A program made the position numbers and the translations under genes. Below the pieces are notes generated by a model. That model worked only from the letters and a program-made list of their open reading frames with translations. It was not told where the DNA came from and did not search any database. Of a DNA stretch of 64,000 nt, positions 880 through 24,141 are shown in pieces; position 1 is the first letter of the stretch; every line of letters starts with the position of its first letter. The DNA lies in contig JAIROG010000034.1 in the NCBI GenBank assembly GCA_031257675.1, forward strand, positions 1-64,000, given 5' to 3'. Origin of the DNA: Treponema sp. (GTDB lineage: Bacteria > Spirochaetota > Spirochaetia > Treponematales > Breznakiellaceae).

Positions 880-897
880 AGTATGAACACGCCCTAG
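880..897 (-). repeat. 18-base inverted repeat, left copy, at the tssM stop codon
   Basis: On the minus strand this reads CTAGGGCGTGTTCATACT and includes the TAG stop of tssM (894-896). The identical 18 bases occur on the plus strand at 29558-29575, where they include the TAG stop of the SpoIIE-type gene. The two copies point outward from the block between them. A CTAG at the edge would suit the target duplication of some IS5-group elements, but no transposase is visible beside either copy. Confidence 0.6.
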
Positions 898-3800
898 CGC
901 CTGACCGTAACCATACCGTCCATGATCCTGAGATTTGGCCACGTCGCGGCGGTATACCACCGATCAGCTCCGGGTATCTCGACGTTGAAATCGATTTCCG
1001 TAAAATACACATATTGGCCTTGTTCATCCTGTAAAAAGACGGGATAATAGGAAACTCCTTTGTCGTCTTTTACCGCATCCTTATGCAGATACAGATCAAA
1101 GATTGACCATGGTTGATTCATGACAAAGACCGCCGCAGGCACCCTGTCCGATGACGCCCGATAAAATTTGAGGCTCACATCTTTGTCAATGGGGCCGCCT
1201 TCGGCCAAGGCGGTTTTTTCGTTGCTATAGGTGTTATAGGATTTCGGGGTCTGTCCGGCGACGGATGCCTCAAGATATCTGAAACGGCTTACCGCAAGCA
1301 GACGTCCGCTCGGGGAGAGTTTCCCATGGATATCAATGGGAGGTTGGGAAAGTGTCCATGTGAGGGGCTTTGAGGAGCTCGCCGCCGCCGAGGCGAATTG
1401 GTAGAGTGTCTGCGCCCAAGACCGGGCGATGGAGCCGCGGAACAGAACAGGATGCAACACCCCTTCCAAGGGGTCAGCGTCTTCGGATTCCGCCATATCG
1501 CCTGCTCCCATGTCTTGCAACAACAAGGCCAGATCCTCCAGGGTTTCAAGGGACAGTACATCCTCCCGGGGGGCATCGGCAACCAGGGGAAACACTTTAA
1601 GGTTTTTCAACATGCCGGAAAAGGCTTCCAGCTTGATGCGGCTAAAGGTATTTGAGAGGATACCAACACCATCCATGATAAAATCGTTCCACCAGCCGAT
1701 GCTGATGTTCCGGGTGTCGGAATAGACAGTCATGTAGGTATCTTTAATTTCATCCAGGGGCAATACGCGGATCTGCCTAAAGGCCGTTTCCGCATCTGCG
1801 GGCAGTCTGCCCCAGGCTGTGAGCATACGATCCGCGTCGGCGCTCATAAAAGCGGAGAGCAACTTTATCCGGTCATTCAGGGATGCGACGGAATCGGCTT
1901 TCTCCCGCTTCAGCACGTCGGACAACACAATATTGTTGATATCGTTTAATATGCCGATGCATTCGCTGTAGAGGGACTGGAGGACCGAATTGATCTGGTA
2001 AGGTTTTATCTGTCCCACCCGCGCCCGGTACTCCCGCCAGTCCGTCGAGGGCATATAGGCGTTGTCGGGGTAATTCCCCCAATAGCTGAGGTATGATCCC
2101 AGGTACGCGCTGAAACCTTCGGTTTGATAGAGAGCCCCATCCCGGTTTTGCAGGAATTTCGGCTGTTCTTTCAAATTCACATGCTGGGTAAAGAAATCGT
2201 TATAGTTCGCGATGCCGTCGGTTATCTCCTTTACTATACCCGGATCATAACTCCGGTTGTACTGTATTCCCCCAAGGGCGCTTTGAATCGCCCGGCCGGA
2301 GAGGGAGAATACCTCACGGTCATCTTCTTCCGAACGGGAGGCTATCATAGCCTGTATGTTTTCGGCGGGACCGGAAAGGAAGTCATATTCCACGCTGAGG
2401 ACGACGTAACGGTTAAGATATGCCTGGGCCGCAAGGATGATCCTGCCGCCGCCGATAAGGACGGAGACTTTTTCGTTTTCTAGGTAGGGTTTAACGTAGG
2501 CTTCGTAATTGTCAAAAGCGGCGGCAATATCGTACTGTCCGCTCATCAAGCTTAGATGGGGGGTATTCCTCAGTTGTACCGGGTCCGGTATGTCAATCGC
2601 CCCGGCAAGATTCAGTATCTTTTCCACCACCATAAAAAGGGAATCCGAATCGGCTTCTTTGGTCATTTTTTCGGACAAAAGCTCGTTTGTTCTCAGGCTC
2701 CGGGCGCCTGCCCGCAGGGATTCCAGTTCCCGGTTCAAATTGCCGGAAAAATCACGCTCCAGAGCGCTGACAGTTCCCAGTACGCCGTCCTTGCTTTCGC
2801 CGCTTTTCTCCCTGATAAAATCCATATCCCTTTTGAAGAGATCGCTGTAATTCTTTACCGCGTAATTGATCACCAGATCGTTAAAAAGGTAATCGTTGAT
2901 CAGGTTATTGCCGAAGGGATCCCCGTCCCCGTTAAAAACTATGGGTATATTAATCTGTAGCATTTCATTTTTTATGTCATCAAAAAGCTCCCTGCCCCGG
3001 GCGATAAGGCTGTTTTGGGTTTGGCTCAAATCCTTCCATTCGGCGACCAGGTTCTGCACCTCCCGCAGGGAAGAAGCGTCGCCGGCCCGGCGCAGAAGCA
3101 GGGTAATCCGCCCGTAATTGGTGACAATATTCTGGGACAGGGAAACCAGGTCTTTTATTTTGCCGTAGAGGGAATCGGGATAGACCGAAAGGCGCTGCCA
3201 AGCGGAAAGCACGATTCGCAGAGCGGCCTCCTTGGCCCGCAGGAATTCATCGGAGAAGACATAGTCCGTTTCCCCGGCAAAGGTGTAACGCTGGTCATAC
3301 CGGGGGATAAAGCTGTTGAGGAGCGCCAATGAATCGTTGGAAAGCTCGGGCAGAAGATAACGTATCATGGTTTCGGCATCGTAGCGGTTGGACTGGAAAA
3401 GCCGCTGGAAATCCGTCTGATCCAGTTCGTCAAGCTGGGTGAAGGATTCAATGACCGAGCGCAGTTCCCGGTCAAGCGTCGGGGAGGCGGAGGATTGATC
3501 GATTAGTTTGGAACCCACGTTCTTGATCAAAGGAGTCCTGATCAGACTCCCGAAAAGCTGGTTGGCAATAAAAATCCGATCCCGCCGGCCCATGTCGAAT
3601 TCTCTGAACACCAGCAGATCCGAAAGCAGAAAACCCGGGGAAGGGATCAATTTGGCGTTCCGGTAGGCCAGGGCGTTGTAGTAAAACTGCACCGGACTTG
3701 AACCGTTGTTTTGCCCTCCGGAATTGTTGTCAATGGAAAAGGTCATGTCCCTGTTTTTTACGATCAACGGCGATCCCAAGTGGGAGGGGGCGCCACGCGG

Positions 3801-5243
3801 GGTGGAGGCAAGGGACTGGTAGTATCCGGCAGGATGAGAGAGGGACGCGCCAAGGTCACCGGCTCTGAAAAGGGCGGAATAAAGGGTGACGCAAGAAAGA
3901 ATCGCCAGAACCCCGCAGAGGGCAAAGAGGGGTATCGCCCGATTGAGAGCTTCCTTCCTGACAAAAACCGCCCGGGGGGAAGGGTTGAAGATAAACTTTT
4001 GCAGGGCGTCCCGGACAAAATAGGAGTGGGAAACAGAAGGTTTTGTCCCGGTTAAAAGGAGATCTTCGGCGTTCTTCTCCGCCAGAGCGGCCATGCCGGG
4101 GCTAAAGGAAAAGCCTGTGTCCGTGGAACTGGTGAAAAACAGTCCCTCGAAAACCGTATCCTTGGTGCTATGAAAGGTATCCTCGCTGAACAGGGTTTCA
4201 AGATAAATATGGAGGTTTTGATACAGGGCGTCGAAATTTTCGGGGAACAAAAAGAGTTTTCCCGCCGTATCCATCCGGTTTGTCGCGCCGGAGAGGTGGA
4301 GCATGAATTCCCGGGAATACATGCTTTTTTTGTAACCAGAACGCAACCGCGAAAGGAGACCGTTCCAAAAGCGTTTGAATTCTTCCGGCCGGTACACGGC
4401 GGTTTCGTTCTCGTACCCCAGAATCTGGTTTCGCAGTTCCCCCGAAAGCCCCATGACGTATTCCCGAAAACCGTTTGCCATGTCGAGCTTGGTAACCACC
4501 ACATAACAGGGCAAGCGCATGCCGCCGGCATCCAGGAGGTGGGCCAGCTCGTTTGCCATGAGGGTGGCCTTTTTACGGGTCATGTCCCTGTCATCCAACA
4601 GGAGGGCGTCCACGGGGATAGTCAGGATAACGCCGTCCAGGGGTTTACGGTAATGCCTGCGGCATATCTGCCGGATAATATGGGTCCATTCCGCGCTGCT
4701 GCCTTCAAGCCAGCGGTCAAAAAAAACGCCGCCGCTTACATCGCAGACCACCGCTTTGCCCCCCAGCCAGAACCGTACCGGCAGGCTTTTGTCCCCGGGA
4801 TCGGACTTTTCTTCCTCCGTCGAAGGGATCATTTCCAGTTCGCTCTCCCGGAGCAGGGTTGATTTTCCCGAACCGGGTTCCCCCAGGAGCATGAACCACG
4901 GCACCCCGTAAAGTCCCCTGCCGTGGAGGGCGGCCAAGTCAAAGCCCTGCTTGAGGAGTTCGTTTATCTTTATGATATTGTCCGAAAGCTCTTCCTTGGC
5001 CTTGTTGTGTTCCTCCCCGCCCTGAGCAAGCCGGGCCACATGACGCCAGATCATCAGGTCCTTGAGGATGTTCCGGGTTTCATGGGCCTTGATCCGTTTG
5101 CGCCGGAGCTTTCCAATAAGGGGCAGCGCCACCAAAAGAAGGAGGAGAAGCAGGATGACAGCCAAAACAACCTTGGCCATGGTACTGGTTCGCAACAGAT
5201 CGAGAGCCTTGGAAATAAAAGAAAAGGATTGATTCTCCATCAT
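894..5243 (-). CDS. tssM: T6SS inner-membrane protein TssM (IcmF family)
   Basis: TssM is the large inner-membrane stator of the T6SS membrane complex, joining TssL in the membrane and TssJ in the periplasm. The protein has 1449 residues, longer than the usual 1100-1200. One hydrophobic segment lies at about 21-43, followed by a cytoplasmic NTPase-like domain with Walker A GEPGSGKS at 121-128 and a TKLD motif at 251-254. A second membrane segment at about 435-457 precedes a long periplasmic region. Most family members have two N-terminal membrane segments; I see only one. The start ATGATG overlaps the tssL stop by four bases, so translation is probably coupled. The stop lies inside the 18-base repeat at 880-897. 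It is the last gene of the operon. Confidence 0.95.
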   Translation of the reverse strand: MMENQSFSFISKALDLLRTSTMAKVVLAVILLLLLLLVALPLIGKLRRKRIKAHETRNILKDLMIWRHVARLAQGGEEHNKAKEELSDNIIKINELLKQGFDLAALHGRGLYGVPWFMLLGEPGSGKSTLLRESELEMIPSTEEEKSDPGDKSLPVRFWLGGKAVVCDVSGGVFFDRWLEGSSAEWTHIIRQICRRHYRKPLDGVILTIPVDALLLDDRDMTRKKATLMANELAHLLDAGGMRLPCYVVVTKLDMANGFREYVMGLSGELRNQILGYENETAVYRPEEFKRFWNGLLSRLRSGYKKSMYSREFMLHLSGATNRMDTAGKLFLFPENFDALYQNLHIYLETLFSEDTFHSTKDTVFEGLFFTSSTDTGFSFSPGMAALAEKNAEDLLLTGTKPSVSHSYFVRDALQKFIFNPSPRAVFVRKEALNRAIPLFALCGVLAILSCVTLYSALFRAGDLGASLSHPAGYYQSLASTPRGAPSHLGSPLIVKNRDMTFSIDNNSGGQNNGSSPVQFYYNALAYRNAKLIPSPGFLLSDLLVFREFDMGRRDRIFIANQLFGSLIRTPLIKNVGSKLIDQSSASPTLDRELRSVIESFTQLDELDQTDFQRLFQSNRYDAETMIRYLLPELSNDSLALLNSFIPRYDQRYTFAGETDYVFSDEFLRAKEAALRIVLSAWQRLSVYPDSLYGKIKDLVSLSQNIVTNYGRITLLLRRAGDASSLREVQNLVAEWKDLSQTQNSLIARGRELFDDIKNEMLQINIPIVFNGDGDPFGNNLINDYLFNDLVINYAVKNYSDLFKRDMDFIREKSGESKDGVLGTVSALERDFSGNLNRELESLRAGARSLRTNELLSEKMTKEADSDSLFMVVEKILNLAGAIDIPDPVQLRNTPHLSLMSGQYDIAAAFDNYEAYVKPYLENEKVSVLIGGGRIILAAQAYLNRYVVLSVEYDFLSGPAENIQAMIASRSEEDDREVFSLSGRAIQSALGGIQYNRSYDPGIVKEITDGIANYNDFFTQHVNLKEQPKFLQNRDGALYQTEGFSAYLGSYLSYWGNYPDNAYMPSTDWREYRARVGQIKPYQINSVLQSLYSECIGILNDINNIVLSDVLKREKADSVASLNDRIKLLSAFMSADADRMLTAWGRLPADAETAFRQIRVLPLDEIKDTYMTVYSDTRNISIGWWNDFIMDGVGILSNTFSRIKLEAFSGMLKNLKVFPLVADAPREDVLSLETLEDLALLLQDMGAGDMAESEDADPLEGVLHPVLFRGSIARSWAQTLYQFASAAASSSKPLTWTLSQPPIDIHGKLSPSGRLLAVSRFRYLEASVAGQTPKSYNTYSNEKTALAEGGPIDKDVSLKFYRASSDRVPAAVFVMNQPWSIFDLYLHKDAVKDDKGVSYYPVFLQDEQGQYVYFTEIDFNVEIPGADRWYTAATWPNLRIMDGMVTVRR

Positions 5244-5959: not shown

Positions 5960-7336
5960 CTATTCCACTATGGTTATAAAGAGGGACATTTCCATTCCGG
6001 GGAAAAGCTCCTTGGCATAATCAATGATCATACCTTTTTCTTCGCACACATCCCTCCAGACTTTTGACGATTCCTCAATGGCCAGCCGGAACCAGAGTGT
6101 CCCGTCGAGGACCGGCAAAAACCGGGGGGGATAGCGCAGGCCGGTAAGTTTTATGCCCCGGACGCGCAGGAATTTTGACCCGGGATTGATCAGCTTAAAG
6201 GTATCCCCCTGCTCCAGAGACCGGATCACCTCCTCTCCCGCCGCCGCGGTCTTTACGGCTAGGTACATTTCGCTTGACTCGGCGATGTCCTCGGTTTTGA
6301 CGGCGGCAAAGAGATAGTTCCCCCCGTCGATAGGCGTAAAGTTGAGCCTGATATACCCGGCCCCTCCTTCGCTCCTGATAAAAGAGCGGATATCCTTAAA
6401 GAGTTCGGTAAACACCGGCAAGCGATCATCGTGATCGTAACGCCAGCTCTCCCGGATTCCATTGTGGGGGTTAATGCCCATGAGCTCCGCCAGAAACGAG
6501 GACAGCTCCAGGTACAGGGCAAAGGGAGTGACAAATCCGTCCACCAAAAGGGAAGAAAGCCTGGTGTTGTAGTAGTTCAGCGTCCGCAACAGCATAAGGG
6601 ACCGGATGTCACCCAGTACGCCGGCCCGGGAAAAGTCCTCCCCGGCCGAGACGGTGGACAGATCGTTTTGCAGTTTGTCCCGGCAACGGCGGATGTCCGG
6701 CATAAGTCCCGTGGCAATGTTGAAAAGGGGATCGTCCGCAGTGAGCATCATAAAAGGAGGGATGTATTTTTCGTCTACCCTGACCATGGACTGGCTTATA
6801 CCCTTGGTAATCACCTCCAGTTTAAGGATGGGCAGGAGTTGCATATCCTTGGTGTCGTCCTGATCCGTTACCAGCCGGGCGTTGATCCTGCGGGTGATGA
6901 GGGTTATTTCGTTATCCCCGGAATTCTCGTCCCGGACCCGTTTTTTTTGGGTCAGGTAGAGCCTCTTTTCCTGGGGAGCGTCCTCATCCGCCATGTTCGC
7001 CTCGAATTCAGACCAATGGGGAGAGGCCGCGTACACGGTAAGTCCCGTGGGATTATTTCTGAGGGCGTCGCTCAGGTCCAAGGGCTTGAGGATGCAGTTC
7101 CCCGGCATGGAAAGTTCCAAGCCGTCCTCCATGACGGCGGAAAAACGTTTGACCGCCACCCGTCCGCCCTTGAGGGCTTCCGGATCAAACTCAAGGTTCA
7201 GAAACCCCCATGGATAGGGCAGAAAAAAGGAACGGTTAAGCCGGGCATACTCCGCGACCGTCCGCTGTTGATACTGAAAATGATGAGGTTGTAGAAACAG
7301 CCCGTCGTTCCAATGCAATAGTTCTTCAAAACGCAT
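5960..7336 (-). CDS. tssK: T6SS baseplate protein TssK
   Basis: TssK connects the T6SS baseplate to the TssL/TssM membrane complex. The N terminus MRFEELLHWNDGLFLQPHHF matches the family signature in which a Trp, a short linker and QPHHFQ follow the start. The length of 458 residues is normal for the family. A GAGGAG ribosome-binding site lies just upstream of the ATG. It sits between tssJ (three bases upstream) and tssL, the usual J-K-L-M order. Confidence 0.95.
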   Translation of the reverse strand: MRFEELLHWNDGLFLQPHHFQYQQRTVAEYARLNRSFFLPYPWGFLNLEFDPEALKGGRVAVKRFSAVMEDGLELSMPGNCILKPLDLSDALRNNPTGLTVYAASPHWSEFEANMADEDAPQEKRLYLTQKKRVRDENSGDNEITLITRRINARLVTDQDDTKDMQLLPILKLEVITKGISQSMVRVDEKYIPPFMMLTADDPLFNIATGLMPDIRRCRDKLQNDLSTVSAGEDFSRAGVLGDIRSLMLLRTLNYYNTRLSSLLVDGFVTPFALYLELSSFLAELMGINPHNGIRESWRYDHDDRLPVFTELFKDIRSFIRSEGGAGYIRLNFTPIDGGNYLFAAVKTEDIAESSEMYLAVKTAAAGEEVIRSLEQGDTFKLINPGSKFLRVRGIKLTGLRYPPRFLPVLDGTLWFRLAIEESSKVWRDVCEEKGMIIDYAKELFPGMEMSLFITIVE

Positions 7337-7339: not shown

Positions 7340-7918
7340 CTACTCCTCATCCGGTGATTGGTGGATTCTCAGCGCCGGTTCCCGGTTGTCCGGCCGTGTG
7401 TTTGCCGCAGGAAGATCGGTCTTGGGGTCCTGGGGGGCGTCGAAAACTCTGGTGAGCTTTTGAGGTTCAATTTCCACATAAACGGACCGGACAAAAACGC
7501 TGTCCTTCTTGAGGTCAATGTAGATGATCCGGGGATCATCCCCGGTCATATCCGGCGAATGGGGCAGGTCCGCGATAAGCGCCAGGGTTACGGGTTTTTT
7601 CTTGAGCCACCGGTCCCAGTATGCCGACCGGAAGGGCAGGACGCCGGGCTGGGTCCGCTCCTGGGAAAAATAGACCGTAAAGGGATCAAGCCGTTTTCGC
7701 AGGGCGCCGCCGGGGGCGAAATACTTGTCCACCCCGTCGCTTTTTATCTGATCCGCTTCTTCGGCGGTAACCGCCACGGCGTCAAATTCTATTGAAGGAT
7801 ATATGGCATAGTAGTCCTCTATTTCCCGGGAAAGACCCACCACCACCGTGCGCTGGGTGGCGCAGCCCGCGAAGAGACAGAGAGAAACCGCCGCCATCCC
7901 TGTCAAAAGCCTGTTCAC
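7340..7918 (-). CDS. tssJ: T6SS outer-membrane lipoprotein TssJ
   Basis: TssJ is a lipoprotein that caps the periplasmic end of TssM. I place the start at the GTG at 7918, giving VNRLLTGMAAVSLCLFAGC with the lipobox LFAGC and the lipidated Cys at residue 19. AAAGGAG lies ten bases upstream of this GTG. Upstream in-frame starts would overlap the preceding gene and bury the signal peptide. The mature part contains the motif VTLALIADLPHSPD and a beta-sandwich-like pattern typical of TssJ, although sequence similarity in this family is low. The C-terminal 40 residues are Pro/Asp/Asn-rich. Context between a DUF6931-like gene and tssK supports the call. Confidence 0.85.
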   Translation of the reverse strand: MNRLLTGMAAVSLCLFAGCATQRTVVVGLSREIEDYYAIYPSIEFDAVAVTAEEADQIKSDGVDKYFAPGGALRKRLDPFTVYFSQERTQPGVLPFRSAYWDRWLKKKPVTLALIADLPHSPDMTGDDPRIIYIDLKKDSVFVRSVYVEIEPQKLTRVFDAPQDPKTDLPAANTRPDNREPALRIHQSPDEE

Positions 7919-7937
7919 TTTCGTTTTTCTCCTTTCA

Positions 7938-9095
7938 TCAAATTCCGGGGTTTTTCGGATTCCACCGTTCGTAGCCGTTGGCGGGAACTCCATTAGCGGG
8001 AGCGCCATTGGCGGAGCTTCCGTTGGCGGGGACGGTCTCGTGGGGGGCGCTCCCGCTGGCGAGGCTGTCCTCCCAGTTGTCCTTCCCGCTTACCACATCC
8101 ACCCCCAAGTTAAAGTAATGCTCGTACCGTTCCTTGACCTTGCGGGTCCCGCCCTTATGGAGGGCGCACATTAAGAGCGTCTGGGAAAGTCCGTTGGCCG
8201 CCAGCCCCGGCGGGGTGGGAACGGTCTGGTCGCCGCCGGGCATAAGGTTGCCGAATGCCCAGAACGCGCTGAGGGACAGAAGCCCCGCGGGGGTATCGGG
8301 ACATTCGTTCCCAATATCAAGGCAGGCCTTGCTGTTCGGCTCATCCGGAACGGCAATCCACCGGTACACCGCGGAGAGGGCGTTGTCCCGCATCTTCTTT
8401 TCGTGTTCGGGAACCTTGGGCGGGATAACCGCTTTGATAGTGTCCACCGCGTCTTTCCGGGCCGCCTGAATCTGGGACTTGAGTTTTTCCGCCTCCACAA
8501 AGAGGGGGGAATTGGGATCGATTTTATACGGGTCCTCTTTGCAACGCTCCACCGCCTTTTTCAAGAGATCCATTGGGTGTATGCCGTGGACCCGCTTGAA
8601 TTCCTGAAAGGCCACCTCCACCGCGTCCCGCACATATTGTCTCATCTCCGGGTCGATTTTAGACTGGGCTTCGGCAAGCTTCGCCTTGGCGTCGGCCAAA
8701 GCCGAGTCTAGCCGCTGGTTCACCTCCGGGGGAACCTGAGGCAGTTCCACCTTGGCAAAATCCGGCACGGTCGTCTCAAAGCTGGCCGCTATGTCCGCAA
8801 TATCCCGGTCCACCGCGGGATTTCGCCCCAATTCCTCCAACAGGGAGAGGACGCAACGGTAAACCCACCAAACCCCCGCCCGGCGGTGGGCGATATACGC
8901 CAAAAGCTCGCAGGCGCTCTTGTAGTCTCCAAGGCGGGCGAACTTGAACGCCATTTCCTCCGCGTCCCGAACACCCACAAAGTGTTCGGCCAAATCCGGC
9001 CGGATTTTGTACCCCTCCTTGTCCACCGCGTCGTTCAGGGTAACGTACCGAATGAGGGTCAAGTGCTTGTTTAACCAGTCTAGTTTATCTGCCAT
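7938..9095 (-). CDS. DUF6931-like T6SS accessory protein b
   Basis: The N-terminal half (about 1-260) is helical and charged, with no family I can name. The segment around 270-350 contains GLLSLSAFWAFGNLMPGGDQ, a Pro-rich turn and a KVKERYEHYFNLGVDV stretch. It is closely related to a segment of the gene at 12960-13790. The style resembles the DUF6931 domain found beside T6SS genes, named from memory. The C terminus has five PANG/SANG/GANG-like repeats followed by ERWNPKNP; its paralogue has an Asn-rich linker followed by NRWKPELP. Position between the spike genes and tssJ suggests a spike-loading, adaptor or cargo role, which is inference. No signal peptide or membrane segment is visible. 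Confidence 0.7.
   Translation of the reverse strand: MADKLDWLNKHLTLIRYVTLNDAVDKEGYKIRPDLAEHFVGVRDAEEMAFKFARLGDYKSACELLAYIAHRRAGVWWVYRCVLSLLEELGRNPAVDRDIADIAASFETTVPDFAKVELPQVPPEVNQRLDSALADAKAKLAEAQSKIDPEMRQYVRDAVEVAFQEFKRVHGIHPMDLLKKAVERCKEDPYKIDPNSPLFVEAEKLKSQIQAARKDAVDTIKAVIPPKVPEHEKKMRDNALSAVYRWIAVPDEPNSKACLDIGNECPDTPAGLLSLSAFWAFGNLMPGGDQTVPTPPGLAANGLSQTLLMCALHKGGTRKVKERYEHYFNLGVDVVSGKDNWEDSLASGSAPHETVPANGSSANGAPANGVPANGYERWNPKNPGI
7972..8040 (-). repeat. In-frame short tandem repeat encoding the PANG tail
   Basis: Imperfect units of about 15 bases (GGAACT/GGAGCG/GGAGCT with CC-TTGGCG) encode the repeated Ala-Asn-Gly linker in the C terminus of the DUF6931-like protein b. The repeat stays in frame and looks like a flexible spacer. 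Confidence 0.6.
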
Positions 9096-9105: not shown

Positions 9106-9498
9106 TCAGGTCATTTTGAGGGCTTTAACCTCAATATCCGAGGCCCCGGCCTTGGTCCTGAGGGCGGAAGCCCCCGAGTCCGCGGCGGTCGCCTCGCCGG
9201 TCAAGGCCCGCGCCTCGGTCTCGCTGGCCTTAACCTCGCCCTCCGCTACGGCGACCCTGTCCTCCGCCAGCTTGCCTTCCGTTTCGGCGGCGGCCACTTC
9301 CGACTTGCTTATGGCCGTGCCGCTTTCCGTCGGATGCATCTCGGTCTTGCCCGTCATGGTGTCCGACTCGTAATTGGTCGCCACCATATCCAGCAGCTTG
9401 CTGGCGACCGCCGCCACAAGCCCCGCGGCCAGCGACGACCCGATAATAGGCGCCACCTCCGCCAGAATCATCGCTCTGGCATCTCCATCAAGTTCCAT
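9106..9498 (-). CDS. Small Ala/Glu-rich protein of unknown function in the T6SS operon
   Basis: The protein has 130 residues. The first 40 include IIGSSLAAGLVAAVASKLLDMV, a glycine/alanine-rich amphipathic or membrane-seeking helix. The remaining 90 residues are a low-complexity run of Ala, Glu, Thr and Ser with repeated ETE/EVKA motifs, likely extended or coiled. A GGAGGAG ribosome-binding site precedes the ATG. It lies between the C-terminal vgrG gene and the DUF6931-like gene b, 13 and 10 bases from them, so it is clearly part of the operon. I do not recognise a family. A spike-delivered or spike-associated small protein is possible but unproven. Confidence 0.65.
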   Translation of the reverse strand: MELDGDARAMILAEVAPIIGSSLAAGLVAAVASKLLDMVATNYESDTMTGKTEMHPTESGTAISKSEVAAAETEGKLAEDRVAVAEGEVKASETEARALTGEATAADSGASALRTKAGASDIEVKALKMT

Positions 9499-9511: not shown

Positions 9512-11644
9512 CTATAATTTTTCTACGTAAGACGGTATCACTTCGGTTTTATCCAAGGCCTGTACCGCCAGCTTGCCCACATCGGCGCCCAATTTCGTGA
9601 CGGCGGCGGCAACTTTTATCCCAAACTGGACCTTTTCCGCCGCAATGGACACCGGGACAGAAACATGCTCGCTGGTCTCCGCGTACAGCTTTTTCTGCTT
9701 GCCCGCCTTTATGACAATGTCCCCGCTGCTTTGTAGGCCTATGGACGCAGGCCCACCGATTCCCCCCACTATGGCTATACTCTGTAGGAAACTCTGAATG
9801 ATTCCGTTATCAACGTCCATAGCGCATATATTCAAGCAATCCCTAAACTCGACCTTCTCGGACGGGGTAGGCGCTTTTACGCTCGAATCCGTAAGGCCCG
9901 CCCTAAGAGTCGTCTGCCAACTGCGGGTATACACTTTTTCTACCGCAAAGTAGACATGGGCGGTTATGCCCAGTATCATATTCAGCACGGATACGGCCGT
10001 TTGAATTGGATCGGCGGACGCGGCTCCAATATTCATAACTTCCGCCATAGCGTCTGCCGATATGAGTTCATCCCGCTTGTCGACATCATTATATGCTTCC
10101 ATCTCTGCCAGTATTTCTCTTGCCGCCGTCTTTTCATCGTCGGTGCCAGTCTCCAACTTGTTGATACAGTCCACCATGTGCTTCTCCTCAAGATAGTCGC
10201 TCAAAGCCTTCTCCCTCAAATCAGCGAGTTTTTGTTTACGTTCAGTCATATGTTTGTAATCGCCCCACAAATCATAGAAACTTTTGCCGTTAGTGACGAG
10301 CATTTTGGCGACGTCAAAACCATAATTAACCCAGCCCGAAGCATAAATTTTATTTGGAGCCGCGAGAGACGCGTTAGCCACCGCTATATCTTGCGTGAGG
10401 GTAATCAAATTCATCAGCGCCGCGAATATCTGTTGCGTCTCGCCGTAGGTTTTCTGGTTTATCTGTATGCCGGACATACTCAGCATTCCCACCACGCTTG
10501 AGAGTCCTCCGCCCCAGGCATCGGCGATGCTGAATTTGCGGGACGAAGCGATGTCCACGTTCTCCCCGAACATGCTTATCCCGCCCCGTGCCTTCAGGCT
10601 TAAAGAGGTGGTCTGGGAAAGGACCGCGTTGGTGCGGAGCTTCCCCGTGGTTACCGTGAACCCGGTGTCGTCAATGACCACGACGGTGCGCCCCACCTGA
10701 AGCCGGATCTCCCCCTGCGCCTTAATGACAACGCTTCTGCCCGCCCGGATGTGCACATCCCCGCTGTGGAGCGCCGAATCGTCCCCGGCGGTGTCTCCCA
10801 GGGGCGCCTTGTCCTCCGACCAATACTGCCAACTGTCTCTGGCGTTATCCGCCCGTGTTTCCGGGCTCAGTTCGTCCGTGTTCGACAGCAACTCAAACCG
10901 CTTTGCCTTTATCAGATGGTAATTCTCGGCGCGGGACTCAATATCCCCGGCGGACTGGATATTGATCACGTCCTGACGGAAGTACCGCCGGGGGTCAAGC
11001 GCATTGCCGGACTTCGTCTCATCAAACGTTTTGAGGGTATTCGGCCACTTGGCTTTTTTGTTGTAAAAACCAATTTCCGACCATTTCGCGTTCGACGCCG
11101 CCGTTGGCTGGGTTTCGAGTTCTACGCCATCCTTTTCTTTCTTTTGGGTTTTATTTGTGTTTTTCTCCGCCTTGTAGCGCATCGCCATGCCGTTATCATT
11201 AATAAAATCTGTCATACTGGCGGGATTCAACTGATCCGCAATGTAACCCGTTTTCGTGTTGTCGGTCGTAGACTTCGAGTCTTTTGGGTAGAAGGGAGCA
11301 TTGGCAGCTGGCGTATCAATAAAATAAGACAAAAGAACCCAGTCGCCGCCAGGCGGCGTTACCCCGGTCAGTACGTTTTGAGCGCCGACTCTTGCCTCCG
11401 TATACACGGTTTCCCCTAGCTTTCCTATCAACACCCATTCTCCAACCCGGGGAAAACGAAAAAGCCCCATATCCCCCCCTACAGGCATGGTAACATGGGA
11501 TCGCTTTACATTCGACGCGCCGCTTTTGCCGTCCGGCATGGCATAAAAGATATAATTATTAAAGTCCGCCCGAATCGACTTTCCGATGTCCGCTTCCAAC
11601 ACGGAACCGTCCGAATTACAAACTCTACATTTTAAAAGATCCAT
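9512..11644 (-). CDS. Split VgrG, gp5-like OB and beta-helix part
   Basis: This 710-residue protein looks like the C-terminal half of a VgrG spike. Residues 1-100 form an OB-type module containing VTMPVGGDMGLFRFPRVGEW. From about 280 to 380 a run of short repeats such as GDVHIRAGRSVVIKAQGEIR fits the gp5 triple beta-helix needle. At about 395-610 the pattern changes to a helical, charged insertion, then beta-helix-like repeats resume (SSGDIVIKAGKQKK). The gp27-like half is encoded by the separate upstream gene at 11703-12947. The insertion could be an effector or docking domain; I recognise no fold in it. An AGAGGAAGAAG ribosome-binding site precedes the ATG. Confidence 0.8.
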   Translation of the reverse strand: MDLLKCRVCNSDGSVLEADIGKSIRADFNNYIFYAMPDGKSGASNVKRSHVTMPVGGDMGLFRFPRVGEWVLIGKLGETVYTEARVGAQNVLTGVTPPGGDWVLLSYFIDTPAANAPFYPKDSKSTTDNTKTGYIADQLNPASMTDFINDNGMAMRYKAEKNTNKTQKKEKDGVELETQPTAASNAKWSEIGFYNKKAKWPNTLKTFDETKSGNALDPRRYFRQDVINIQSAGDIESRAENYHLIKAKRFELLSNTDELSPETRADNARDSWQYWSEDKAPLGDTAGDDSALHSGDVHIRAGRSVVIKAQGEIRLQVGRTVVVIDDTGFTVTTGKLRTNAVLSQTTSLSLKARGGISMFGENVDIASSRKFSIADAWGGGLSSVVGMLSMSGIQINQKTYGETQQIFAALMNLITLTQDIAVANASLAAPNKIYASGWVNYGFDVAKMLVTNGKSFYDLWGDYKHMTERKQKLADLREKALSDYLEEKHMVDCINKLETGTDDEKTAAREILAEMEAYNDVDKRDELISADAMAEVMNIGAASADPIQTAVSVLNMILGITAHVYFAVEKVYTRSWQTTLRAGLTDSSVKAPTPSEKVEFRDCLNICAMDVDNGIIQSFLQSIAIVGGIGGPASIGLQSSGDIVIKAGKQKKLYAETSEHVSVPVSIAAEKVQFGIKVAAAVTKLGADVGKLAVQALDKTEVIPSYVEKL

Positions 11645-17071: not shown

Positions 17072-18121
17072 TTATAACTTGCTTTTCTTCCTTCGCGCAA
17101 ACCGGGAAGCGTCGATCCGTAGTTCCAACTTCCTGTCCGTGCTGCCGATCCAGCAGGTATATCCTGCATGGGCCGCATCGTCGTTGGACTGGGTCCAGTC
17201 AAAGCCAAGCCGCGCCGGAGGAACCGCGCCTCGCTCAAGCTGGACAACAAAGGTATAATCCAAAGGCCGGTCCATGTAGAGGTTAATGACCCGGCACAGT
17301 ACCTCAAAACCGCCGGAGGGAGTCATCAAGGACTGATAGAAGTCAAAGCCAATGGGCCCTATCTCTATCTCAACCCGGCGGGTTACACAGAGGCAACTTC
17401 GTCCAATCTGCATGTTCAAGCCCAGTGTTGCGGTGGCGGGATTCCCCAAAACGGCGCGGTGATCCAGATCGAGGTCATAGGGGGCGGCGATAAAGTCCTT
17501 TACCCTTACCCCGGTCTTGAGCATACACCGCAGGGTATCCTCCAGTCCGCTCCGGTTCCTGGCCATAAAGGAAAAATTTTCCGCATAGGAAAGGACGGCA
17601 GACTCGGAAACCGGATCAAAGCCCATGTGCGGAGGCAATCCGGCAAAACTTTTTACAATGTCCCTCACCGGGTCATCACCGGGGCGGTCAAAGCTGATGC
17701 TCTGCTCGTTCTGGGCAAAGGCCCGGTAAAAAAATACATGCATCCGGTGGTGGATAATATCCAGAAACCGCCGCCAGGTTTGATCGTAATAATTGTAGGA
17801 ACGCTGATGCACATAATGGGTAAATTCCAGGGGCATGGGCCCGTTTACCCCCAGAAGGCCGAAGAAGTAGGTAAACAGCGCCGCTTCAACGCCGGACTTT
17901 TTCCCTTCTACAACCTCCGCGATATCGGTGGCGGGAAAGTAGAGGTAGGGCATTTGTCCAAAACGGACATTTTCCTCCGCCGGATGTTTGGCGTAGCCCA
18001 AGCGAGGCCGGTCTGGGGCATTTTTTTCGAGTCTCCGCACAAAGCCCCAAAAATCCGGGGACGCCACACCCTTGCGAAGTCTCTGGGACCAGGTCCGGAT
18101 CAGTCTTCTAAGGTCTTCCAT
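17072..18121 (-). CDS. tssG: T6SS baseplate protein TssG
   Basis: TssG pairs with TssF in the baseplate wedge. I chose the ATG at 18121 (MEDLRRLIRTWSQRL), which has GGGAG nine bases upstream and overlaps the tssF stop by 22 bases; an extension to 18229 would be Cys-rich shadow sequence. The protein has the family segments FTYFFGLLGVNGPMPLEFT and HRMHVFFYRAFAQ. It also has the late stretch LGLNMQIGRSCLCVTRRVEIEIGP. The length of about 349 residues is normal. Confidence 0.93.
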   Translation of the reverse strand: MEDLRRLIRTWSQRLRKGVASPDFWGFVRRLEKNAPDRPRLGYAKHPAEENVRFGQMPYLYFPATDIAEVVEGKKSGVEAALFTYFFGLLGVNGPMPLEFTHYVHQRSYNYYDQTWRRFLDIIHHRMHVFFYRAFAQNEQSISFDRPGDDPVRDIVKSFAGLPPHMGFDPVSESAVLSYAENFSFMARNRSGLEDTLRCMLKTGVRVKDFIAAPYDLDLDHRAVLGNPATATLGLNMQIGRSCLCVTRRVEIEIGPIGFDFYQSLMTPSGGFEVLCRVINLYMDRPLDYTFVVQLERGAVPPARLGFDWTQSNDDAAHAGYTCWIGSTDRKLELRIDASRFARRKKSKL

Positions 18122-19908
18122 ACCGCAACAGCTCCCGATTGTTTGGTTAAAAAATGGATCTCCAGAAGGGAATTGACCGGGGCAAAGGACATTAAAACTT
18201 CCGCAATGATCTTCCCAAAAACATAGCATCCGATACCGGCGTAGGCGGTTTCGTCAAGGGTAAAGGTGATCTTCCATCCCAGTTCAAAAAAAACCGCCCC
18301 CCTCTTTATAAAGCGAAAGGCGCTGCTTTCACTCTTCAGGGAAACTATGCCCTCCAGCATGCGTTCCGTTTCCTCCCCCGCCCTGACTTGATAGGAAGCT
18401 ATAAGCGTCCTGAAAGCCTCCAAGGGGAATTTTCCGTTCTGCCACAACAGGGCGGAGAGGTTAAAAGTAACATGACTCAGTTTTGAAAAATCCGAAGTTT
18501 TCCCCTGCTGAAAGAGGGAATATTCCGGCCTTGTGGGACGGACGATAAAGACCGCCCCGGTCAGGAGGGGGCTGTGGGCGTTCAGCGGCGTTTCCGGCGG
18601 TATGAGTAGGGGCAGATCCCGATTGGTACAGATCGTATCCGCAGAAAACTGGTAGGACCCTTCCATTTTTTTATCCTGTACCGAAAAGGACACAAAGACT
18701 TCGGAGCCTTCATAAGAACTGCGCCGGACATTCCGTGAATTCACCAGGCTCTTGTTGCGGCGCTGGCTGAAAAAATTCTTCATGGACTTTTCTTCCAGAG
18801 GATTGTCATCGTAAAAGCTATTGGCGAAAAAAAGAGTTTCGTTTTGCTCGTTAAAGAATTCCAGACGCTGAATATGCGCCACCTCATAATCATGGGGCGC
18901 CGTCCGGTCTGGAACAACATGAAACTGATATGCCTCTTTTTCGATCAACACCCGGTCGGATCGTTTGGCAAAAAGATTTAAGACGGGAACACAGTTCAGT
19001 CTGAGGGAAGAACTCTTGATGGAAATCAAGGACGGCTCCCGGCGATTAAAAACCAGCAGGAGTTCCACGGTGTTTACGGAGGAAGAAAAAACGCCGCTCA
19101 GGTTCCTAATGGTAAAAAACTTAAAAAAGGCAGGGTAGGCAAAAAAATTTTGCAGCGCCTTGAGTCCCAGAGCATGCCCCCTGATCTGTCCGGAAAGAAG
19201 TTTTTCCCCTGAAGCCAAGGGCATATCAAAAGAAAGCCCCTGTAAGGGAACAAATTGTGTTCCCGCTTCGGCGCGGATATAACAGTCCGCCCTTTCGTGC
19301 ATGATCTGGCGAAGGAGCAGGGAAGCGTCGGCTTCCGCCAGATTGATGTAAACGGTGAGTTCGTCCGGCAGGGAAAAAATGGCGTCCCCGGTAACGGAGG
19401 AGAGTTTTATACGGAGCCCCGCAAGACCCTGGGGATTATTGATCCCGTAATCCGAAAGGTTTCTGGTTATGTATTCCGCGTCTTCTACCGCAAGGGGCAA
19501 GATCACCCTGTCGTCCAGCGTCGAAAAACGGCAGGGAGTGTTAATGGTGGGGATAAAAGCATCCAGCACGGCGCCCGCACCAAGGACGGCGGCGTTCGAA
19601 CGCACCTGCTCGTTGCCGGCGTTGAGGGCCAACTCCAGCACCGCCCCCGAGGGAATGGGATACAGGGCGGCGGGAGACACGGAATTCAAAACCGATTCCA
19701 ATAAATGGTAATACCCTTCGTCAAGTTTTTTCTCTACCCTGGCGGATAAAAAAGCGGTTCCCTCCAGGAGCCGTTCAATATAAGGATCTTCACATTCAAA
19801 TTCATCCAGCCCCAAACGTCCCGCGACCTTGGGAAACTCCGCGGCAAACTCCGCGGCTAAATTCCTTATATAGGTAAGATTATCACGATAATAATCCAAA
19901 AATTCCAT
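18100..19908 (-). CDS. tssF: T6SS baseplate protein TssF
   Basis: TssF builds the baseplate wedge with TssE, TssG and TssK. The N terminus MEFLDYYRDNLTYIRNLAAE followed by EFPKVAGRLG is the classic family start. The start at 19908 has AGGA seven bases upstream; a TTG two codons earlier is also in frame but less likely. Length (602 residues) is normal. A weakly conserved C-terminal region ends inside the start of tssG. It is ten bases downstream of tssE. Confidence 0.94.
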   Translation of the reverse strand: MEFLDYYRDNLTYIRNLAAEFAAEFPKVAGRLGLDEFECEDPYIERLLEGTAFLSARVEKKLDEGYYHLLESVLNSVSPAALYPIPSGAVLELALNAGNEQVRSNAAVLGAGAVLDAFIPTINTPCRFSTLDDRVILPLAVEDAEYITRNLSDYGINNPQGLAGLRIKLSSVTGDAIFSLPDELTVYINLAEADASLLLRQIMHERADCYIRAEAGTQFVPLQGLSFDMPLASGEKLLSGQIRGHALGLKALQNFFAYPAFFKFFTIRNLSGVFSSSVNTVELLLVFNRREPSLISIKSSSLRLNCVPVLNLFAKRSDRVLIEKEAYQFHVVPDRTAPHDYEVAHIQRLEFFNEQNETLFFANSFYDDNPLEEKSMKNFFSQRRNKSLVNSRNVRRSSYEGSEVFVSFSVQDKKMEGSYQFSADTICTNRDLPLLIPPETPLNAHSPLLTGAVFIVRPTRPEYSLFQQGKTSDFSKLSHVTFNLSALLWQNGKFPLEAFRTLIASYQVRAGEETERMLEGIVSLKSESSAFRFIKRGAVFFELGWKITFTLDETAYAGIGCYVFGKIIAEVLMSFAPVNSLLEIHFLTKQSGAVAVWKTLED

Positions 19909-20480: not shown

Positions 20481-20975
20481 TTATTCGTTAGCGATCTGGT
20501 CGAAGGCGGCTTCAATCGCCCCGTCCTTGGAGCCGTCGGGCTTGATGGGGGTAACCTTCCAAGTGATCTTTCCGGCCACCAGCTCCACCTCTTCCACCGG
20601 CTGCTGGGCAAGGGGATCATTAGCATTGGTATCAATAGTCTTGACTTCTGTCTTCGCCACCCGCACATTTTCCAGGGTAACCTCGTATACCGGAGTGGGA
20701 GCGCCGCCAATTACCCTGCAATACTGGAGCACGGCCTTGCCTATTTTACTGCCATTCACGCAGTAAAGCTGAATCTTCGGCGTTGCCTTGTCCACCGCGT
20801 GGACAAACGTAAAGGGTTGAAATTCCCCCCGACCGGCCACATCGCCGCCCCGCTGGATGGATACATTCTGCTTTGCGCCATGGGCGAAAGCAATAAGTTC
20901 CAGCCATTTGTCATGGGCCTTGTCGGCCGCCTGACCCTCAATTCCTTCGAGTTGCAGAAAATATGTTCCTGACAT
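20481..20975 (-). CDS. hcp: T6SS tube protein Hcp (TssD)
   Basis: Hcp hexamers stack into the inner tube that carries effectors. The 164-residue protein starts MSGTYFLQLEGIEGQAADKA and has the family's early substrate of a beta-barrel with HDKWLELIAFAHG and a central QPFTFVHAVDKATP segment. No C-terminal effector extension is present. A strong TTTGGAGG site precedes the ATG. Hairpins lie on both sides of the gene, which would suit differential expression of the most abundant T6SS protein. Confidence 0.94.
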   Translation of the reverse strand: MSGTYFLQLEGIEGQAADKAHDKWLELIAFAHGAKQNVSIQRGGDVAGRGEFQPFTFVHAVDKATPKIQLYCVNGSKIGKAVLQYCRVIGGAPTPVYEVTLENVRVAKTEVKTIDTNANDPLAQQPVEEVELVAGKITWKVTPIKPDGSKDGAIEAAFDQIANE

Positions 20976-21018: not shown

Positions 21019-21030
21019 TGAAACACATGT

Positions 21031-22515: not shown

Positions 22516-22528
22516 ACTATACCTTCCT

Positions 22529-23062
22529 TTATTCCGTTCTGGAATCTTCCGTTGGCGCGGCTTTCGCTTCCTTTGCCTTTTGGGACAGGGCTTTAAGCAG
22601 GGCAGGATCCTTGAGCACCTTGTTCAGAAGATCCTCCGCCCCCTGTTTCCCGTCCATGTAGGAAAGCAGATTGGCAAGCTGTTGCCGGGCTTCCATGAGC
22701 TGCTTGATGCCGTCTACCTTGGAAGTAACCGCCGCGGGGGAAAAATCCGCCATGCTTTCAAAGGTCATTTCCACAGGGATATTACCCTCCCCGCCTATTA
22801 TGTTGGGAACCGTAAAGGCTACCCGGGGCTTGATCGCCTTGAGGCGGTCGTCAAAATTCTCGCTGTCTATTTCCAAGACCTGCCTATCTTCGACCCTGGG
22901 CAGGGGATCAGCGGGTTTGCCCGAAAGATCCGACATAACCCCCATGACGAAGGGCAAATCGACCTTTTTTTCCACGCCGTTCATTTCAACATCGTATTCG
23001 ATTTGAACCCTGGGCGCTCTGTTCTTTGCGATAAACTTTTGACCACTGTTACTTGAAGCCAT
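22529..23062 (-). CDS. tssB: T6SS sheath small subunit TssB (VipA)
   Basis: TssB pairs with TssC in the sheath. The 177-residue protein has the N-terminal RAPRVQIEYDVEMNGVEKKV strand and LPFVMGVMSDLSGKP followed by a DRQVLEID segment. The C-terminal helices contain LLSYMDGKQGAEDLLNKVL. An ACAGGAGG site precedes the ATG. It is the second gene of the operon, 29 bases after tssA. Confidence 0.96.
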   Translation of the reverse strand: MASSNSGQKFIAKNRAPRVQIEYDVEMNGVEKKVDLPFVMGVMSDLSGKPADPLPRVEDRQVLEIDSENFDDRLKAIKPRVAFTVPNIIGGEGNIPVEMTFESMADFSPAAVTSKVDGIKQLMEARQQLANLLSYMDGKQGAEDLLNKVLKDPALLKALSQKAKEAKAAPTEDSRTE

Positions 23063-23091
23063 TCCGAACCTCCTGTTTATTATTATGATTC

Positions 23092-24141
23092 CTATGAATC
23101 CGGCTTTATGCCTAAAATATCACGCCCTCGCGCAAGGGCATCGGGCGCGATGTCCCCAATTATTTCGATAAAACTCATTTCGGAGAAACGCAACGCCCTG
23201 TTTATCAAAAAGGGGATGGGGCTGTTGGGTTCCTGGTCATGAAAATACTCGGACCCTTTTTTCAACAGCAACAGCGCCTCCGCCCGGGTTGCGGCATGAT
23301 AGGAAAGGAGGGAAATCTTTTCCCCGGAAACGGGGGCGGCGCCCTCCTTTGAAGGTGTATCGGGGGTTTCCTCCGGAACGTTTTGGGAAGCCGGTATCTG
23401 GGAATCAATGTGGGCGCCGTAAAAGGCGGCGAGCCGGTCCAGTTCATGGCACAACGCGGACATGTCCAAGGTATAGCCCTGCATCTTGCCGTTCATTGCA
23501 TCCCGAAGTTCCGTAATAAGGACAAGCCCTTCTTTGACCAGAGCCGACTGGGACTCAACCTCCGCAACCGGCACGTTCATCAGTTCCGCCCGCAACAGTT
23601 TGAGGTCGACGGCTTTGTCGTCGCTCACCTCAATTTCGTTGAGGGAAATGAGCAGGTCCCGCAGGGTATAGCGCAGGGAAGGAACCAAGCGGGTTTCGCG
23701 GAAACGGGGAATAAACATGATCGGATCGTTAATGGCCCCGGACTGGGGGGACAACATGGAAAGAATATTCAGCCGTTCCAGGGAGTCGTTGCCATCGTCA
23801 GGATCAAGCCGGGGATAAAAGGAGTCCCAGAGTTCCTTGACTAGAAACACCAGCACCTTGAGACCGGCGGACAGCCCCGCAATGCCACCGATAATGGACT
23901 CGGCGATGACGAGGTATACGGCCACCCGGAGGTCCCGGGTCTTGGTCCACAGTTCAAGGCAGTTTTTGCTGAGTTTTTTCCACTCCGGCCCCCGCCCCTC
24001 GATTTTGGAGTCCCCCATAAAACTATCCGAGACTTCTACCGCCAAGGAGTCCATCTCCATGTACAGAGGATCGTATTCAAGGTTCTGCCCGGCGGGGTCC
24101 GCTCCCTCAAGCTTAACGCTTAACGCTCCAGCATCGATCAT
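23092..24141 (-). CDS. tssA: T6SS assembly protein TssA (ImpA_N domain)
   Basis: TssA primes and coordinates sheath polymerisation. The N-terminal ImpA_N domain includes GPEWKKLSKNCLELWTKTRD and LSAGLKVLVFLVKELWDSFY, then PRLDPDDGND. The C terminus has the VasJ-like end EPNSPIPFLINRALRFSEMS. The open frame extends to a TTG at 24162, but the ATG at 24141 has AAGGTG five bases upstream and is preferred, giving 349 residues. It is the first gene of the T6SS operon, with a promoter candidate about 50 bases upstream. Confidence 0.9.
   Translation of the reverse strand: MIDAGALSVKLEGADPAGQNLEYDPLYMEMDSLAVEVSDSFMGDSKIEGRGPEWKKLSKNCLELWTKTRDLRVAVYLVIAESIIGGIAGLSAGLKVLVFLVKELWDSFYPRLDPDDGNDSLERLNILSMLSPQSGAINDPIMFIPRFRETRLVPSLRYTLRDLLISLNEIEVSDDKAVDLKLLRAELMNVPVAEVESQSALVKEGLVLITELRDAMNGKMQGYTLDMSALCHELDRLAAFYGAHIDSQIPASQNVPEETPDTPSKEGAAPVSGEKISLLSYHAATRAEALLLLKKGSEYFHDQEPNSPIPFLINRALRFSEMSFIEIIGDIAPDALARGRDILGIKPDS

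What the first reader, a model, noticed from the sequence alone, without database searches (positions are those of the whole stretch)
894..24141. Complete type VI secretion operon in a spirochaete-like genome
All core genes tssA-M plus hcp, PAAR and vgrG parts are on one strand with gaps of at most tens of bases, and the domain motifs look intact (both ClpV Walker sites, TssM Walker A, TssJ lipobox, TssF and TssK N-terminal signatures). T6SS is mainly known from Proteobacteria and Bacteroidetes; in spirochaetes it is rare. The gene order (A-B-C-D-E-F-G-H-PAAR-...-I-...-J-K-L-M) and extra genes may define a distinct subtype.
Basis: partly seen in the sequence, partly recalled or inferred. Interest (0 to 1): 0.75.

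Follow-up and report, generated by a model that had tools for sequence, protein, structure and literature searches.

The report
Spirochaete secretion island with split VgrG
A gut spirochaete carries a complete contractile injection machine, probably acquired from elsewhere, in which the tip protein, normally one piece, is encoded as a fixed base and a separate, apparently interchangeable spike; this would be a simple way to swap payloads.

Summary
In detail: window 894-24162 (minus strand) is a near-canonical type VI secretion operon, A-B-C-D-E-F-G-H-PAAR-[spike parts]-J-K-L-M, in a family whose members are named Treponema/Spirochaetaceae MAGs. The A-to-H order also occurs in proteobacterial clusters with close TssC, so gene order does not make a new subtype. 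The unusual part is the middle: VgrG is split into a 414-aa gp27-like hub (11703-12947) and a separate 710-aa protein (9512-11644) whose start fits the VgrG OB domain. The stand-alone hub is found in 19 of 27 T6SS-bearing genomes (11 genera), one full copy each. Spikes occur up to four times per genome; 26 of 31 are followed by a DUF6931 protein. Hub sequence distances track the core machine; those of spike, 130-aa protein and DUF6931 do not. I read this as one fixed hub with exchangeable spike-payload cassettes; an in-frame relic (12960-13790) marks a deleted one. Congeners lack the roughly 29-kb segment (insertion here or loss there). Eight genomes show no full hub. Francisella is a precedent for separate gp5 and gp27 parts. 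Assembly, payload and targets are untested.

The parts
23092..24141 (-). tssA (short, ImpA_N; likely ATG at 24141)
   Evidence: Pfam ImpA_N 84 bits; TIGR03363 159.7 bits, cut-off 160.85
22529..23062 (-). tssB, sheath small subunit
   Evidence: Pfam 187 bits; TIGR03358 180 bits
21031..22515 (-). tssC, sheath large subunit
   Evidence: Pfam VipB 427 bits; best PDB match 5n8n
20481..20975 (-). tssD/hcp, tube
   Evidence: Pfam 102 bits; TIGR03344 63 bits
19918..20430 (-). tssE, gp25-like
   Evidence: Pfam 45.6 bits; TIGR03357 59.5 bits, over cut-off
18100..19908 (-). tssF
   Evidence: Pfam 392 bits
17072..18229 (-). tssG (start may be internal; overlaps tssF)
   Evidence: Pfam 214 bits
14398..17061 (-). 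tssH/clpV, ATPase (likely start at 17061)
   Evidence: TIGR03345 1179 bits; two Walker A motifs
14107..14397 (-). PAAR-like tip, 96 aa
   Evidence: Pfam PAAR 23.6 bits, below cut-off 27; homologues next to hub genes in other loci of the family
12960..13790 (-). relic: spike head fused in frame to a DUF6931 tail
   Evidence: residues 1-93 best match the L078 spike head (55%), 89-267 best match the L078 DUF6931 tail (57%)
11703..12947 (-). hub: stand-alone gp27-like half of VgrG, 414 aa
   Evidence: Phage_GPD over nearly the whole model; profile matches the N-terminal part of VgrG structures; found in 19 of 27
9512..11644 (-). spike: stand-alone gp5-like half of VgrG with a variable helical C-terminal part, 710 aa
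   Evidence: residues 1-113 superpose on the VgrG OB domain in a modest model; weak TssI_Fran match 293-372
9106..9498 (-). 130-aa cassette protein
   Evidence: alignment of 18 relatives; after the spike in 21 of 31 cassettes
7938..9095 (-). DUF6931 protein, candidate payload adaptor
   Evidence: Pfam 82 bits; after the spike in 26 of 31
7340..8008 (-). tssJ-like lipoprotein (by position and lipobox)
   Evidence: no family match; homologues next to tssK in other loci
5960..7336 (-). tssK
   Evidence: Pfam 210 bits; TIGR03353 237 bits
5240..5956 (-). tssL/DotU
   Evidence: Pfam 66 bits; hydrophobic segment at 190
894..5243 (-). tssM/IcmF, 1449 aa
   Evidence: Pfam IcmF-related N-terminal 131 bits; Walker A
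25624..29561 (+). STAS, GNAT and PP2C/HATPase genes on the same segment, possible regulators
   Evidence: Pfam; GNAT and PP2C relatives in L072 beside spike cassette genes
880..897 (+). left arm of an exact 18-nt inverted repeat at the edge of the segment
29558..29575 (-). right arm of the same inverted repeat

Best explanation
It is a T6SSi machine, close to the i3 kind, whose VgrG is encoded as two proteins. A single gp27-like hub (414 aa) is a fixed part of the baseplate and seeds the Hcp tube. A separate gp5-like spike (710 aa) trimerises on top of it, carries a variable payload or docking region at its C-terminal end, and is capped by the small PAAR protein. The spike gene travels in a cassette with a 130-aa protein and a DUF6931 protein that loads or stabilises the payload. 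Because hub and spike are separate genes, one machine can fire different spikes, and cassettes can be gained or lost without touching the baseplate. The apparatus lies on a segment of about 29 kb that congeners lack, most simply an insertion. Shown: gene content, the split, its recurrence, the hub's single full copy, several spikes in some genomes, the cassette layout, the different sequence histories of hub and cassette, the absence of the segment at this place in congeners. Inferred: that hub and spike assemble, that DUF6931 is an adaptor, that the spike end or the 130-aa protein is delivered, that the segment was gained here and not lost there, that the machine is active.
For: Core set and motifs. 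Hub = Phage_GPD positions 1-300 of 305; 6 of its 7 PDB matches are VgrG-like or eCIS chains, matched in their first 225 residues (the seventh, an AMP nucleosidase, has E 0.86). Spike residues 1-113 superpose on residues 353-457 of several VgrG and eCIS hub chains (Z 7.1-8.2); the only two Foldseek matches under E 0.001 are VgrS and VgrG1 (prob 0.97, TM 0.13-0.14). Stand-alone hub in 19 of 27 T6SS-bearing genomes, one full copy each; two or more separate spikes in 11 of 27, 7 of them with a hub found, the window's second spike being the relic (my count). DUF6931 follows 26 of 31 spikes, the 130-aa protein 21 of 31. In L078 the cassette lies between PAAR and hub, so hub and spike are not one broken gene. 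Distances against TssF: TssC 0.94, TssK 0.91, hub 0.61 (p 0.002); DUF6931 0.02, 130-aa 0.11, spike -0.13 (not significant) (17 of the 19 hub genomes used, G622 and G636 left out). DUF6931 covaries with the 130-aa protein (0.47, p 0.002) and with the spike's C-terminal part (0.29, p 0.001). DUF6931 relatives lie between vgrG and PAAR genes on the two Vibrio plasmids read, of six with a match.
Against: 8 of 27 T6SS genomes show no full hub, nor by profile; fragmented MAGs may explain it, but both g10 genomes lack it while having 3 and 4 spike matches. G486 has three hub-tail pieces, all at contig ends, so several cut hubs there are not excluded (contig data, 116, 119). The spike model is of modest confidence (pLDDT 60.5), its sequence passes no family cut-off, Z of 7-8 is near this tool's background, unrelated OB proteins such as IF-1 score 7.2-7.3 and the top row (Z 9.0) is an unrelated match to the helical part. 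The missing correlation of cassette genes with TssF could reflect old paralogues, not exchange, since one copy per genome was used. Spike head and 130-aa protein do not covary (0.06). No Pfam family at all in 8 variable cassette proteins scanned. The 130-aa model is poor (pLDDT 55). No expression data.
Confidence: 0.75

Rival explanations
1. An ordinary T6SSi in an unusual host; the separate hub and spike are a broken vgrG or an assembly error.
For: The rest of the operon is canonical and TssC is close to known proteobacterial clusters.
Against: The split recurs with intact frames in genomes of 11 genera; 19 aligned hubs share 35 invariant columns; in L078 and L072 hub and spike are arranged differently from the window.
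Confidence: 0.07
2. The separate spikes are not payload carriers: the cassette is a structural tip set (spike, 130-aa protein, DUF6931) and effectors ride on Hcp or are encoded elsewhere.
For: No Pfam domain was found in 8 variable cassette proteins scanned, and no effector-immunity pair is recognisable in the window operon.
Against: The spike's C-terminal part is far more variable (15% identity to the window copy) than its OB (31%) and beta-helix (41%) regions; several cassettes per genome in 11 of 27.
Confidence: 0.3
3. The segment is old in the genus and has been lost by the congeners sampled; in this species it may be decaying too.
For: All 10 other sampled genomes of the genus lack TssF; G593 has a lone tssA-like gene on a 3.5-kb contig; one cassette in the window is a deletion relic; the window TssC is sister to those of neighbouring genus g11.
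Against: All core frames in the window are open and closely spaced; the flanks are adjacent or nearly so in four congeners, with inverted repeats at the edges here.
Confidence: 0.2

Closest known systems
T6SSi of the i3 kind, e.g. P. aeruginosa H1-T6SS (recalled) and plasmid clusters of Thiodictyon, Leisingera, Rhizobium phaseoli
   Same: A-B-C-hcp-E-F-G-H order and ClpV in Thiodictyon and Leisingera; TssC 62-68% identical to the nearest plasmid copies and 738 bits to 5n8n
   Different: VgrG is one 675-aa gene in R. phaseoli, whereas hub and spike are separate here; no TagJ in the window; DUF6931 cassettes are added
Francisella T6SSii (gp5-only VgrG plus PdpA)
   Same: gp5-like and gp27-like parts on separate proteins (PMC10653695, passages seen)
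   Different: Francisella lacks ClpV by that paper and its sheath is distant (3j9o, which I recall as Francisella IglB, 246 bits vs 738 for 5n8n); no multiple spike cassettes in the passages seen
Contractile phages such as T4 (gp27 and gp5 separate)
   Same: separate hub and spike genes (stated in PMC10433429, passages)
   Different: here within a T6SS with membrane complex and ClpV; few-pattern scans of IMG/VR with hub, spike, DUF6931 and 130-aa alignments confirmed no relative
Vibrio plasmid T6SS with VgrG-DUF6931-PAAR
   Same: DUF6931 protein beside the spike genes
   Different: VgrG there is one gene of about 660 codons and the DUF6931 protein is short (about 190 aa)

Membership tests
T6SSi | TssB/TssC sheath of the T6SSi type | tested here: met
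   Pfam and NCBIfam over cut-off; TssC 738 bits to 5n8n
T6SSi | ClpV/TssH ATPase | tested here: met
   TIGR03345 1179 bits, cut-off 885
T6SSi | baseplate TssE-F-G-K | tested here: met
T6SSi | membrane complex TssJ-L-M | tested here: inconclusive
   TssL and TssM over Pfam cut-offs, TssJ by position and lipobox only
T6SSi | spike made of gp27-like and gp5-like modules | tested here: met
   both modules present, on two proteins; the gp5 part rests on a modest model
canonical VgrG/TssI (TIGR03361) | gp27 and gp5 fused in one polypeptide | tested here: not met
   hub matches model positions 10-169 of 513 at 59 bits, cut-off 186; the spike is a separate gene
T6SS subtype i3 | TssB/C placement among i3 references | tested here: inconclusive
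   TssC tree with 13 plasmid references puts the spirochaete clade (95/91) beside Thiodictyon, R. phaseoli and Leisingera rows, enclosing forks 88/97; the i3 label of these rows is inferred from PMC9113992 and recall, no labelled sequences were used
T6SSii (Francisella) | IglB-type sheath, no ClpV | tested here: not met
   ClpV present; 3j9o is the weakest of 8 PDB matches of TssC
T6SSiii and T6SSiv | their sheath clades | not tested
   no references of these types were put in the tree
extracellular contractile injection system | no TssJLM, no ClpV (recalled) | tested here: not met
   TssL, TssM and ClpV present

The most novel reading that the evidence does not exclude
A T6SSi in which a single dedicated hub protein accepts any of several spike proteins, so that whole spike-payload cassettes are exchanged between genomes and stacked within them, perhaps by recombination at the 3' end of the hub gene, making the tip a modular magazine in place of one VgrG per payload.
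Probability: 0.35. Interest if true: 0.85.

Novelty: new variant of a known kind. Interest (0 to 1): 0.68.

Why it matters
[quoted passage not shown] A ClpV-bearing T6SS with the two parts separate breaks that rule outside Francisella, and a one-hub, many-spikes layout would let experimenters separate what docks the tube from what selects the payload. It also adds Spirochaetota to the phyla with a full T6SS: a 2022 paper lists seven phyla without it (PMC9113992, passages seen).

Tried and rejected
Phage origin of the spike parts: IMG/VR scans with one or two peptide patterns each confirmed no relative of hub, spike, DUF6931 or 130-aa protein; PHROGs gave two weak matches for six proteins. Binning error: rejected; window 52757-58050 is 85-91% identical in DNA to six congeners (G516, G358, G341, G335, G593, G480), 71-74% over its main matches in three others (G295, G373, G479), unmatched in G553, and about 69-73% in genus g11. 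A beta-helical reading of the 130-aa protein: AlphaFold2 gave a low-confidence helical model. DUF6931 fold by sequence: no convincing PDB match. PAAR by PDB sequence: nothing relevant. Hub outside spirochaetes: the genome-contig scan confirmed 24 loci, all titled Treponema or Spirochaetaceae, but used a single peptide pattern, so absence elsewhere is not shown. Plasmid matches of the hub (43 records, 20 listed) are annotated tssI/VgrG in the rows listed and cover at most half of the query. The inverted-repeat core (14 nt) was in none of 135 fetched loci, so it is no mark of T6SS islands in general. Paper searches: T6SS with spirochaete, DUF6931 (13), T6SS with termite and Treponema, gp27/gp5/VgrG/split, T6SS with Spirochaetes clusters, phyla and subtype, Treponema MAG T6SS, an accession, Francisella VgrG, gp27-like/gp5-like/split VgrG. 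From the listings and the passages seen in five papers I found no report of this arrangement or of a spirochaete T6SS; preprints and most subscription journals are not held.
Full report
What is there. Eighteen minus-strand genes between 24162 and 894 encode TssA, B, C, Hcp, E, F, G, H, a 96-aa PAAR-like protein, a 276-aa protein, a 414-aa protein, a 710-aa protein, a 130-aa protein, a 385-aa DUF6931 protein, a TssJ-like lipoprotein, TssK, TssL and TssM. Walker A motifs are intact in ClpV (two) and TssM. The window is bases 1-64000 of a 72,676-base contig of a 2.37-Mb genome assembly, 83% complete.

Whose genome. In a sample of the phylum TssC occurs in 2 of 392 genomes; in a sample of the order TssF occurs in 27 of 390, the window's own included, all in the window's family, over 15 genera, only 3 of them among the 195 genomes at least 90% complete and at most 5% contaminated. 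Named contigs with the same lengths carry the titles Treponema sp. and Spirochaetaceae bacterium. That these MAGs come from termite guts is recalled, not tested. None of the 10 other sampled genomes of the window's genus has TssF.

Which T6SS. TssC matches 5n8n at 738 bits (recalled as P. aeruginosa TssC1 of the H1 system), then 529, 367 and down to 246 bits for 3j9o, Intracellular growth locus protein B. On plasmids the closest is Thiodictyon (68%), then Sinorhizobium, Rhizobium, an E. coli record and Leisingera (62-65%) (40 of 436 records listed, spread down the ranking). Thiodictyon and Leisingera have tssA-B-C-hcp-tagJ-E-F-G-H. In a tree of 37 TssC rows (24 spirochaete rows, two of them one genome, and 13 plasmid references) the spirochaete rows form one clade (95/91) next to rows of Thiodictyon, R. 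phaseoli, Leisingera, Pantoea and Rhizobium Kim5; the enclosing forks have 88/97 and several references have long branches. I take this neighbourhood for i3 from PMC9113992 (passages) and recall. Gene order is therefore no mark of a new subtype.

The split VgrG. The 414-aa protein matches Phage_GPD positions 1-300 of 305 (75 bits, cut-off 30) and TIGR03361 only at 10-169 of 513. A profile of 19 homologues matches seven PDB sequences: six VgrG-like or eCIS chains in their first 225 residues, and an AMP nucleosidase at E 0.86. The 710-aa protein passes no family cut-off. Its AlphaFold2 model (31 sequences, mean pLDDT 60.5; block means 73-87 over the first 50 residues) has VgrS and VgrG1 as the only Foldseek matches under E 0.001, with low TM-scores of 0.13-0.14 because one domain aligns. 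VIA-align places residues 1-113 on residues 353-457 of several VgrG and eCIS hub chains at Z 7.1-8.2; unrelated OB proteins such as IF-1 reach 7.2-7.3, and the top row, Z 9.0, is an unrelated match of the helical part. So an OB fold at the start is supported, and that it is the VgrG one rests on the repeated VgrG rows, the gene neighbourhood and a weak TssI_Fran match at 293-372. In R. phaseoli VgrG is one 675-aa gene.

Recurrence of the split. The hub is found in 19 of 27 T6SS genomes, in 11 of 15 genera, one full-length copy each; the only extra match is a 32-residue piece in G501. In five genomes the match runs over a stop, but the frames called there are 406-423 aa, so the stop is the hub's own end. 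Eight genomes have none; a profile search of those eight finds only pieces of about 40 residues in G486. Spike matches occur in 23 of 27, in G416 only of the C-terminal part. Counting separate spikes, 11 of 27 genomes have two or more: G000 (one is the relic), G356, G460, G486, G487, G495, G501, G604, G606, G616, G628; of these G356, G486, G495 and G606 have no full hub (my count). In L078 the order is PAAR-spike-CTD-130 aa-DUF6931-hub-J-K-L-M, and in L072 PAAR-hub-spike lie divergent from the rest.

Cassettes. Of 31 spikes longer than 300 aa in the fetched loci (window not counted, L026 left out as overlapping L071), 26 are followed by DUF6931 and 21 by the 130-aa protein. Of the five without DUF6931 downstream, four run into contig ends and the fifth, L074, has DUF6931 upstream (and contig lengths). 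Some cassettes hold an unrelated small protein in place of the 130-aa one. Along the spike, mean identity to the window copy is 31% in the OB region, 34% in 119-250, 41% in the beta-helix region, 15% in the helical C-terminal region and 18% at the end. Distances between genomes follow TssF for TssC (0.94, 14 genomes), TssK (0.91, 10) and hub (0.61, 17; p 0.002), but not for DUF6931 (0.02, 15), the 130-aa protein (0.11, 13) or spike (-0.13 and -0.07, 15) (one copy per genome; hub genomes G622 and G636 left out). Over 20 full cassettes DUF6931 covaries with the 130-aa protein (0.47, p 0.002), the spike head (0.29, p 0.013) and the spike C-terminal part (0.29, p 0.001); the 130-aa protein does not covary with spike head (0.06) or C-terminal part (0.09). 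DUF6931 relatives lie between vgrG and PAAR genes on the two Vibrio plasmids read, of six with a match. I therefore propose that DUF6931 is a payload adaptor; known classes are DUF4123, DUF1795 and DUF2169 (PMC10433429, passages).

A relic and possible scars. The 276-aa protein joins a spike head (residues 1-93) to a DUF6931 tail (from 89), and both parts match best the cassette of L078, which lies at the same place between PAAR and hub. The simplest reading is an in-frame deletion of a former second cassette. Pieces of the hub's 3' tail lie inside G501 (two, 20-22 residues, next to the end of one cassette and 38 bases before the next spike) and G495 (12 residues, E 0.005, 43 bases before a spike); G356 shows two at E 0.04 only; the three in G486 lie at contig ends and could be cut hub genes. 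That cassettes enter by recombination at the hub's end thus rests on one clear and one slight case. For this reason I lowered the novel case from 0.4 to 0.35 in checking.

The segment. DNA similarity to congeners resumes at 29,901-29,906 in 6 of 10 other genomes of the genus. In G341 and G593 window 14-218 or 26-218 and 29,901-29,906 onward lie within about 200 bases of each other; in G335 and G516 window 296-776 and 29,672 or 29,699 onward lie 1.2-1.3 kb apart; in G358 and G553 only the right flank was matched in the stretch fetched. The T6SS and the STAS-GNAT-PP2C genes thus lie on a segment of about 29 kb absent at this place in four congeners. Insertion here is the simplest reading; loss there is not excluded, as the window TssC is sister to those of genus g11. 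The edges carry an exact 18-nt inverted repeat (880-897, 29558-29575); six further places in the genome match it with 2-3 mismatches against 2 for the reversed control, but its core is in none of 135 fetched loci. No transposase or integrase was among the 22 proteins of the segment scanned with Pfam; smaller frames were not scanned.

How it works, graded. Shown: gene content, split, recurrence, cassette layout, absence from congeners. Well supported: hub as part of the core machine. Inferred: assembly of hub and spike, adaptor role, delivery of the variable end, gain by insertion. Open: targets. No further gene recurs in the cassettes; immunity genes would vary, so this says little about whether targets are bacterial.

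Known or new. Francisella T6SSii already has a gp5-only VgrG with a partly gp27-like PdpA (PMC10653695, passages). A split within a ClpV-bearing T6SSi, with one hub and several spike cassettes, I did not find in the searches named in Tried and rejected; most of the literature is not held. I file it as a new variant of a known kind.

Noticed in passing
window 25624-29561: STAS, GNAT and PP2C/HATPase genes on the segment; GNAT and PP2C relatives lie downstream of a spike cassette in L072, a PP2C relative (with a weak GNAT match) in L090 and STAS plus PP2C relatives in L104, hinting at a partner-switch control module.
   Followed up: partly
window 774-807 and 30115-30148: 34-nt direct repeat at 91% on either side of the segment, the right copy inside gene 29891-30547, exonuclease-like by a recalled motif.
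   Followed up: partly
L133 220-1287: Lone tssA-like gene (59% identical) on a 3.5-kb contig of congener G593, which lacks TssF.
   Followed up: no
L003 (G356): T6SS cluster A-B-C-E-F-G-H without hcp between C and E and without spike genes; its spikes lie on other contigs and no hub was found.
   Followed up: partly
L038 17014-19899: Repetitive lipoprotein-like gene (962 aa to the end of the stretch) downstream of a spike cassette.
   Followed up: no
window 24523-25344: 273-aa protein with a signal-like start and aromatic-rich strands, possibly an outer-membrane barrel; no Pfam or NCBIfam match.
   Followed up: no
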